This document shows, one piece after another, positions 20,895-23,434 of a stretch of DNA of 64,000 bases. The first letter of the stretch is position 1. Every line of letters begins with the position of its first letter. The notes beneath the pieces were generated by a model, which was given only the letters and a program-made list of their open reading frames with translations, did not search any database and was not told where the DNA came from. The stretch spans positions 186,001 to 250,000 of the forward strand of contig NC_072813.1 in NCBI RefSeq assembly GCF_003013715.1, written 5' to 3'. The stretch comes from Candidozyma auris. Lineage: Eukaryota > Ascomycota > Pichiomycetes > Serinales > Metschnikowiaceae. Made by a program: the position numbers and the translations under genes.

Positions 20895-23434
20895 ATGAGG
20901 GAAAAGGGCCCGTCACGGAAAAAACACAAAAACAGTAAGCTCGGGTGCGCCACGTGCAAGCGCCGCCGAGTCAAGTGCCCAGAGAACTTGCCTGCTTGTC
21001 TGAATTGCATCAAGCACGGGTCTCGGTGTGAGTACTTGGACTACACCGAGAAGCAGCTTGAGGATTTTGCCCGGGCCAAGCTGGCGCAAGGGACCGAGAG
21101 CGACCTGAGGCGAGCGAAAAACAGTGATGGCTCTCGGGGAGACGTCAGTCGGAGCGACCTTGAGGGTCTGCTTGACGAACGGGCCAGGCTAGCGAAGTTG
21201 CACATCGATGAGAAAAAGAGCAGGGATAACAAGAGCGAGAGCGGCCCTGAACAGCTGGCTGAGCAGTCTGGGGGTGGGAGACCGCCGGTTGAGCACACCT
21301 TCAGCGCGGAGCTGGTGATGGACGTGGAGATGATGGCCATTGAACAGCAGCACGAGCTGAACCGGCTGCTTGGACTCCTGCTACAGGACCATATCGAGGT
21401 GCAGCCGCTGCTTATGGATCCACGCTCGCTTCCAGATTCTATGTCGTTTGATCTCCAGCACGATAGTATGGGTGGGCAGGCAGCCACGGGAGGACTCCTA
21501 CCGGGGGGTGTGCTGGACGTGCTCAATTTCCAGCACAACGCCATCACGCAGAACTTTGACAACTTGTTGGCTGGCGGCGGCGGCGGCGACGGCGACGCCC
21601 CAGGCGATGGTACCCAGATCATCTATCCGGTTTACTCGATTCACAATAGCAATTTTGTCACGCCAGGAGCTGTGGAGTGGGAAAGTGACTATAGCAGCAG
21701 TGAGGGCAATGGGGGCAGTGGCTCTGGCGGTGCCGCAGACGGGCCGTTGGTCAACGCTCCCTTGCGTCCCACGGGCCCCTTCGCTGCTGCCAGAGACGTA
21801 TTCCGCTCGCCGTATTCCGCTCGCCTGAGGCCGTCAAACTGCAATTGCCGCTGAGACTGGCGCTGGCGTTTGCTGAAAAGGCTCTGCTGGTGTCCCCTGC
21901 TCCACCTTTCTCGCGAGCTTCTCCAGGGTCAGCGCTTCCCGGTGCACAAATGACTCCTCGTCGCTTCAAAGTGCCTACTCGCCTGACTACAAATTATGAG
22001 GAGCTTCTTTTTCAAACGACGGCAGTGTTGGCTCCGCGAATAGCCAAGGGTCTCGCCTCGTTACCAGAGATCCGCAACTTGTACCATGTATGGATTGGCT
22101 ACTTCATCTACAAGGCGTTCAAGTCGAGCGTGATGTTTCTGTGTCTTCTCAATCTCACAACTAATTATCTCATCACCAACGTGTTCTCTGCTGACATGGA
22201 CACTCGCTTCGATGCGCTTGTTCTGCTCACGAAAACAAGAAATATGCTTTTGGTGCACCTGATTCAGCATTATGCCACTGTGATAAAGGGTCTACGGTCG
22301 TTGCTCAATCACCATGGTGACCCAGAAATGGCGGCGTCAGTGTCGTATATTTTGTCTCTTATGTCCATTTACGACCCTGGTGCTACTGCCCACTCCACCA
22401 CATGTTTTCGGGACGGCATGTTCCTGGTTCTCAGCTATACTTTGCACCAGGCCACAAGACAAGGCGTGGATCCACCACGCTTGATTCCAATTCATCTTCA
22501 GCTCATGACCAATGTTGCCCGTACAGTATATTTGCCAGGATACGGGACCCTGTTTTTGTACGAGTTCGAAAGCATGTACGCTCGGTTTGGTGCCATTCTT
22601 GATCGTGCTGAAAAGTGTCTGCCCCAAGCAGGCAGTAATTTGGCACTTCTCAAAAAAAAGTATAACGAGTTATTGCTGTTTTCAAAAGACGCCATAAGGC
22701 ACCATTTACCAGCACTTGACTCTCATATGGACGATATTGAATACCAGGAAGACGTTCTCTTCACCATGTTCAACCGCTGGTCAAAGTTGCAACCACCAAG
22801 ATTTTTAGTGGCCACAAGCCGTGCTGAGGGCCTCGAAAAAGTTCTTAATTTATTTTATCGGGTATTTCGGAAGGCCATCTTTGCAGTGGTGCCGCAAGTA
22901 CGCTTTTTATTTTTGCGTGACTTCGATTCTCCTCTAATGTTGGATGTGTTTGCCAACTATAACACCGCCACTATTTTGGAGGAGCTCAAGGACTCAACCA
23001 CTGCTTCGATAGCACATGAGGTGTATCAAGAACTCGTACCAGAGCTTCAATACTTAGCAGCATACTGCGTGAGACTAATCACATTCCTCACCCTTCGTAC
23101 AACTATCTTGTACCGAAACTTGGTTTACGAGGAGAGAGTTCGAGAGTTGATCCCGATCTACAATGTTGTGGAGTGGCGAAAGTCAATCACCAACATTGAG
23201 GTTACCAGGCAAGACTTCCACGAACTCATTGGGCTACTGGAGTACCCGATCACATCTTTTAAGGACACTTACATAACACACTCACACTATCCTCAAATAG
23301 TTGATCCTCAATCCCCAGGTGCCAAGTTAGCCACACCAAAGCCCCCAGATAATGACGGCGCCGACGGTCAGGTGGACATGTTGTCGCTTCAGCCACATGG
23401 GCTCTTGAAGCACGACGTGTTTCCAGAGATCTGA
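20895..23434 (+). pseudogene. Zn(II)2Cys6 transcription factor split by a 14-bp tandem duplication
   Basis: Paralogue of the upstream zinc-cluster gene. The first part (ATG 20895 to TGA 21854, 319 residues) carries the zinc cluster at Cys18, 21, 28, 35, 38 and 45 with the same spacing as its neighbour, and SRCEYLDYTEKQLEDF after it. The second part, open in another frame from before 21794 to 23434, carries the helical regulatory region (for example RNLYHVWIGYFIYKAF). The break coincides with a perfect 14-bp tandem repeat (21798-21825). Counting only one repeat unit makes the two parts one frame of 841 codons, close to the 866 of the neighbour. As given, the product is a DNA-binding stub; an ATG at 21950 could start a separate 494-residue protein without the zinc cluster. 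The first part is GC-rich (GGC run near 21573-21590), unlike most neighbours. It could be a true null allele, a recent mutation or a sequence error. Confidence 0.85.
21798..21825 (+). repeat. Perfect 14-bp tandem duplication causing a frameshift
   Basis: Two adjacent copies of GTATTCCGCTCGCC, at 21798-21811 and 21812-21825. Fourteen is not a multiple of three, so the second copy shifts the reading frame into a stop at 21852-21854. Confidence 0.97.

What the first reader, a model, noticed from the sequence alone, without database searches (positions are those of the whole stretch)
21798..21825. A perfect 14-bp tandem duplication breaks a zinc-cluster regulator
Two adjacent GTATTCCGCTCGCC copies sit exactly where the zinc-finger part changes frame to the regulatory part. 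Counting one copy gives one frame of 841 codons, close to the 866 of the tandem paralogue; the second copy creates a TGA 27 bp on. A slippage event of this kind is reversible, so it could be a fresh null, a strain difference or an on/off switch. Seen directly; the consequence is inferred.
Basis: partly seen in the sequence, partly recalled or inferred. Interest (0 to 1): 0.88.

Follow-up and report, generated by a model that had tools for sequence, protein, structure and literature searches.

The report
Frameshifted yeast zinc-cluster regulator gene
In this yeast genome, very probably a Candida auris type-strain relative, a 14-base stutter in the DNA breaks a gene-control protein that is whole in related yeasts; it looks like an ordinary strain-level gene loss.

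Summary
The 14-bp perfect tandem duplication is present and unique in the genome. It splits a conserved, uncharacterised Zn(II)2Cys6 regulator into two open frames: 20895-21854 (zinc cluster) and 21704-23434 (helical regulatory domain). The genome is Candida (Candidozyma) auris, most likely the clade II strain B11220 (12.25 Mb, 7 contigs, MTLalpha, ~145-kb duplication). Zinc cluster and regulatory half share one protein in 68 of 71 hits. Best reading: a recent loss-of-function allele. Whether it is strain-only, clade-wide or an assembly error is undecided: no reads or sister genomes were available, though the published B11220 assembly was Illumina-polished. An on/off switch has no support beyond the repeat: two copies, 1 bp extra homology, motif seen once per relative. 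The 866-codon neighbour is only a distant member of the same broad class. Ordinary in kind; low to modest interest.

The parts
21798..21825 (+). perfect 14-bp tandem duplication, two copies (period-14 run 21797-21825); period not divisible by three
20895..21854 (+). N-terminal open frame, 319 codons: Zn(II)2Cys6 cluster (residues 17-51) and linker; the last residues (307-319) do not match the intact protein
   Evidence: residues 1-306 match P0001 with one difference, at 161
21852..21854 (+). TGA that ends the N-terminal frame, 27 bp after the duplication
21704..23434 (+). regulatory-domain open frame (576 codons stop to stop) in another phase, overlapping the first; ATG at 21950 gives 494 codons
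   Evidence: the 494 residues match P0001 348-841 with one difference; AlphaFold2 mean pLDDT 86.7, nearly all helical
17362..19962 (+). 866-codon zinc-cluster regulator next door, one open frame; distant relative only

Best explanation
A conserved Zn(II)2Cys6 transcriptional regulator of Candida auris has lost function in this lineage (very probably B11220, clade II) by a recent 14-bp tandem duplication. The duplication shifts the frame in the linker between the DNA-binding cluster and the helical regulatory domain. The first product ends after 319 codons and keeps the zinc cluster only; the regulatory domain lies in another frame and would need its own start, for instance at 21950. Shown: the duplication, the two frames, the intact near-identical protein, the unsplit relatives. 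Inferred: that the lesion is in the living strain, that it arose in this lineage, and that the outcome is loss of function.
For: Perfect single-locus duplication with a frame change there. Intact 841-residue protein P0001 (representative of a 90%-identity cluster of 34 member sequences) matching both pieces with one difference each. P0002-P0004 (811, 794, 804 aa) also read straight through, each with one copy of the local motif. Zinc cluster in the same protein in 46 of 51 hits of the regulatory piece and 68 of 71 hits of P0001. Little decay: 1 difference in 494 residues and no further stop in the regulatory frame. In sampled DNA the duplications inside long frames keep phase (3 of 3). [quoted passage not shown]
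Against: No reads and no second C. auris genome could be examined, so an assembly error is not excluded. P0001's source is unnamed, so polarity rests on the relatives. Loss of function is inferred; reinitiation or frameshifting is untested. The one NCBI-named C. auris protein found (P0005, CJJ09 tag) is a 604-residue model without the zinc cluster that ends early, so the gene may be poorly modelled or broken more than once; no NCBI-named full-length C. auris protein turned up. Both protein searches scored only the roughly 8,000 candidates sharing most words and have length limits.
Confidence: 0.78

Rival explanations
1. Assembly or polishing error: the strain carries no duplication and the gene is intact.
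For: The published B11220 assembly was built from Nanopore R9.4 or R9.4.1 reads with Flye (PMC8128392 section 6); a near-identical intact protein exists in public data; no reads were available here.
Against: All twelve assemblies of that paper had four or five rounds of Illumina correction. A perfect 14-bp duplication that is no homopolymer is not a typical Nanopore error (general knowledge). The window also differs from P0001 at two other residues, so it is not simply the same allele misassembled.
Confidence: 0.12
2. Altered rather than null: the truncated zinc-cluster product is made and occupies the regulator's DNA sites, or both halves are made separately.
For: Complete zinc cluster kept in the 319-codon product; regulatory domain predicted to fold on its own from the 21950 ATG.
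Against: An early stop with about 1.6 kb of message behind it usually exposes the message to decay (general knowledge); no expression data.
Confidence: 0.06
3. Reversible on/off switch: cells gain and lose one repeat copy and so turn the regulator off and on.
For: Direct repeats of this size can in principle be lost again by slippage (general knowledge); period not divisible by three.
Against: Only two copies and 1 bp of extra homology; no inverted repeat; fold weaker than 199 of 200 shuffles. In the 13 of 78 fetched proteins where the local motif pattern is found it is present once. Contingency repeats are usually many short units (general knowledge).
Confidence: 0.04

Closest known systems
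Clade II-only loss-of-function genes of C. auris (37 genes; PMC8128392, passages)
   Same: Gene loss in the same clade, found by genome comparison
   Different: The list (Supplementary Table S4) could not be read, so whether this gene is on it is unknown
Premature stop in B9J08_001232, an FCR1 homologue and zinc-cluster factor, in C. auris clade I (PMC10821368, passage)
   Same: Natural truncation of a zinc-cluster regulator in the same species
   Different: Nonsense SNP rather than a duplication; associated there with lower echinocandin MICs; that it is another gene is assumed from the name, not tested
TAC1a/TAC1b tandem zinc-cluster pair of C. auris (PMC7178551, passages)
   Same: Two zinc-cluster regulators side by side; similar lengths (805 and 863 aa there)
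   Different: The 866-aa neighbour agrees at 3 of 25 published Tac1B positions and P0001 at 1 of 5 Tac1A positions
Upc2 ligand-binding domain (PDB 7xb5)
   Different: Ranks 12th among mostly unrelated helical proteins of equal Z; Foldseek gave 0 matches at E <= 0.001; inconclusive

Membership tests
Fungal Zn(II)2Cys6 transcription factor | binuclear zinc cluster | tested here: met
   PF00172, residues 17-51, E 1.4e-09, 38.3 bits against cut-off 21
Fungal Zn(II)2Cys6 transcription factor | regulatory domain in the same polypeptide | tested here: not met
   In the window the two lie in different frames; in relatives they share one protein (68 of 71)
Strain-level null allele | disrupting lesion relative to an intact allele of the same species | tested here: met
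   P0001 is intact and near-identical; that P0001 is C. auris is inferred from that near-identity, its source being unnamed
Strain-level null allele | lesion confirmed in reads; no functional product | not testable with these tools
   no reads or expression data
Phase-variable (contingency) locus | repeat copy number varies between strains or relatives | tested here: inconclusive
   motif found once in each of 13 of 78 proteins that hold the pattern; no second genome of the species
Phase-variable (contingency) locus | array of many short units | tested here: not met
   two copies of 14 bp
TAC1A/TAC1B regulators | published residues at known positions | tested here: not met
   neighbour: 3 of 25 (Tac1B), 1 of 5 (Tac1A); P0001: 2 of 25, 1 of 5; another zinc-cluster protein as control: 2 of 25, 1 of 5
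Upc2-like ligand-binding regulators | Upc2-type regulatory fold | tested here: inconclusive

The most novel reading that the evidence does not exclude
The duplication is a switch: a minority of cells in the population carry another copy number and so make the full regulator, giving a heritable on/off state of a transcription factor in the clade II type-strain lineage.
Probability: 0.04. Interest if true: 0.7.

Novelty: new member of a known kind. Interest (0 to 1): 0.25.

Why it matters
If confirmed in reads, a reference strain of clade II lacks a regulator that is conserved in many related yeasts. Expression or phenotype comparisons that take B11220 as 'wild type' would have to allow for that, and the gene would join the catalogue of clade II gene losses, unless it is already there. 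The function of the gene is unknown, so no phenotype is predicted.

Tried and rejected
Rejected: TAC1A/TAC1B identity. Intron instead of lesion: P0001 and the near relatives read through as plain proteins, so no intron is needed; not tested on transcripts. Relatives split at the same place: not seen. could not show pieces shorter than about 463 aa because of its length limits, but the searches with the separate pieces could: the N-terminal piece found one protein, matching only its zinc-cluster fifth (P0052); of 51 hits of the regulatory piece, 5 lack a zinc-cluster mark (P0005, P0015, P0022, P0024, P0047), one of them (P0024, 443 aa) from a 1,549-base contig. The neighbour as close paralogue: one search looked strong until another zinc-cluster gene gave the same; two proteins of other kinds gave 0.1%. 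Hairpin or inverted repeat as cause: none; one imperfect 13-nt direct repeat, 160 bp apart, lies outside the duplication.

Led nowhere: sequence search of solved structures, 0 hits up to E 1; Foldseek and VIA; Rfam, 0 matches at gathering scores; paper search for CJJ09_002069, 0 papers; papers on duplication and reversion, off topic. In the listings of 9 paper searches and the passages read I saw no mention of this duplication. The gene's reference locus tag is unknown to me and no supplementary table could be read, so absence from print is not claimed. Papers seen: PMC8128392 as sections 6, 12 and 18 and passages; PMC7218281, PMC7178551, PMC12843039, PMC10607439, PMC6785063, PMC8092288, PMC8664941, PMC10821368 and PMC9218166 as passages only.

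Full report
What was checked. The 14-bp perfect tandem duplication at 21798-21825 is present and its 28 bases occur once in the 12,249,773-base, 7-contig genome. The three of those sites that fall in frames over 400 codons have periods 12, 12 and 15; the other seven lie in frames of at most 138 codons. The window's has period 14 and sits where two long frames overlap. The sample of three is small.

Whose genome. The one NCBI-named C. auris relative is CJJ09_002069 (P0005; 97% over 65% of the piece). The genome has a MATalpha HMG-box gene; MTLalpha is reported for clades II, III and VI (PMC12843039, passage). ERG11 reads V125-F126, not the F126L reported for clade III isolates; not every clade III isolate is said to carry F126L, so this alone does not exclude clade III. 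Two P450 genes on contig C6 start 145,837 bases apart and their stretches are 99.88% identical over 4,287 columns. PMC8128392 reports a 145-kb tandem duplication in B11220, the only case among its assemblies (section 12; placed on chromosome 6 there and on chromosome 7 in another passage). PMC6785063 reports a duplication of about 146 kb with a P450 gene in B11220 (passage). With 12.2 Mb and 7 chromosomes, B11220 is the best identification; it is an inference. That assembly used Nanopore reads, Flye and four or five rounds of Illumina correction (section 6).

How it works. Most likely a simple frameshift null. The duplication falls in the linker at a motif shared with near relatives, so the first product keeps the DNA-binding cluster and loses the regulatory domain. 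The near-absence of other changes fits a recent loss. How the duplication arose is open: there is 1 bp of extra homology, no inverted repeat and no stable fold. All clade II isolates are reported to carry a nonsense change in DCC1 that the authors link to genome instability (PMC8128392, passage); a link to this lesion is speculation.

The 866-codon neighbour shares only the zinc cluster by BLASTP. Its profile similarity (99.6%) is matched by another zinc-cluster gene 1.1 Mb away (99.6%) and absent in two proteins of other kinds (0.1%), so these are members of one broad class rather than a recognisable recent pair. By zinc cluster the best match elsewhere in the genome is on contig C7 (58.6 bits), just ahead of the neighbour (55.3 bits). 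The switch idea has no support beyond the repeat.

Limits. No reads, no other C. auris genome, no expression data and no supplementary tables were available. P0001's source is unnamed. Whether the lesion is confined to one strain or shared by clade II, and whether it is already listed in PMC8128392 Table S4, remain open.

Noticed in passing
G000:C6 356467-357753 and 502304-503590 (L012, L010): Two P450 genes 145.8 kb apart whose stretches are 99.88% identical over 4,287 columns; fits the published B11220 duplication.
   Followed up: partly
P0005 (C. auris CJJ09_002069): The one NCBI-named C. auris protein found for this gene is a 604-residue model without the zinc cluster, ending three residues after the stretch that matches P0001 661-666: a second lesion, or a poor gene model or assembly error.
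   Followed up: partly
13762-16407 +: MutL-type mismatch repair gene in one open frame (MutL_C, DNA_mis_repair), two genes upstream of the broken regulator.
   Followed up: no
1-10233 -: Open frame of 3,411 codons running off the window's left end; a giant protein, not identified.
   Followed up: no
21001-22000: GC peak of 0.59 against 0.44 for the window, over the regulator's N-terminal half.
   Followed up: no
20290-20326: C-rich tandem array between the two zinc-cluster genes.
   Followed up: no
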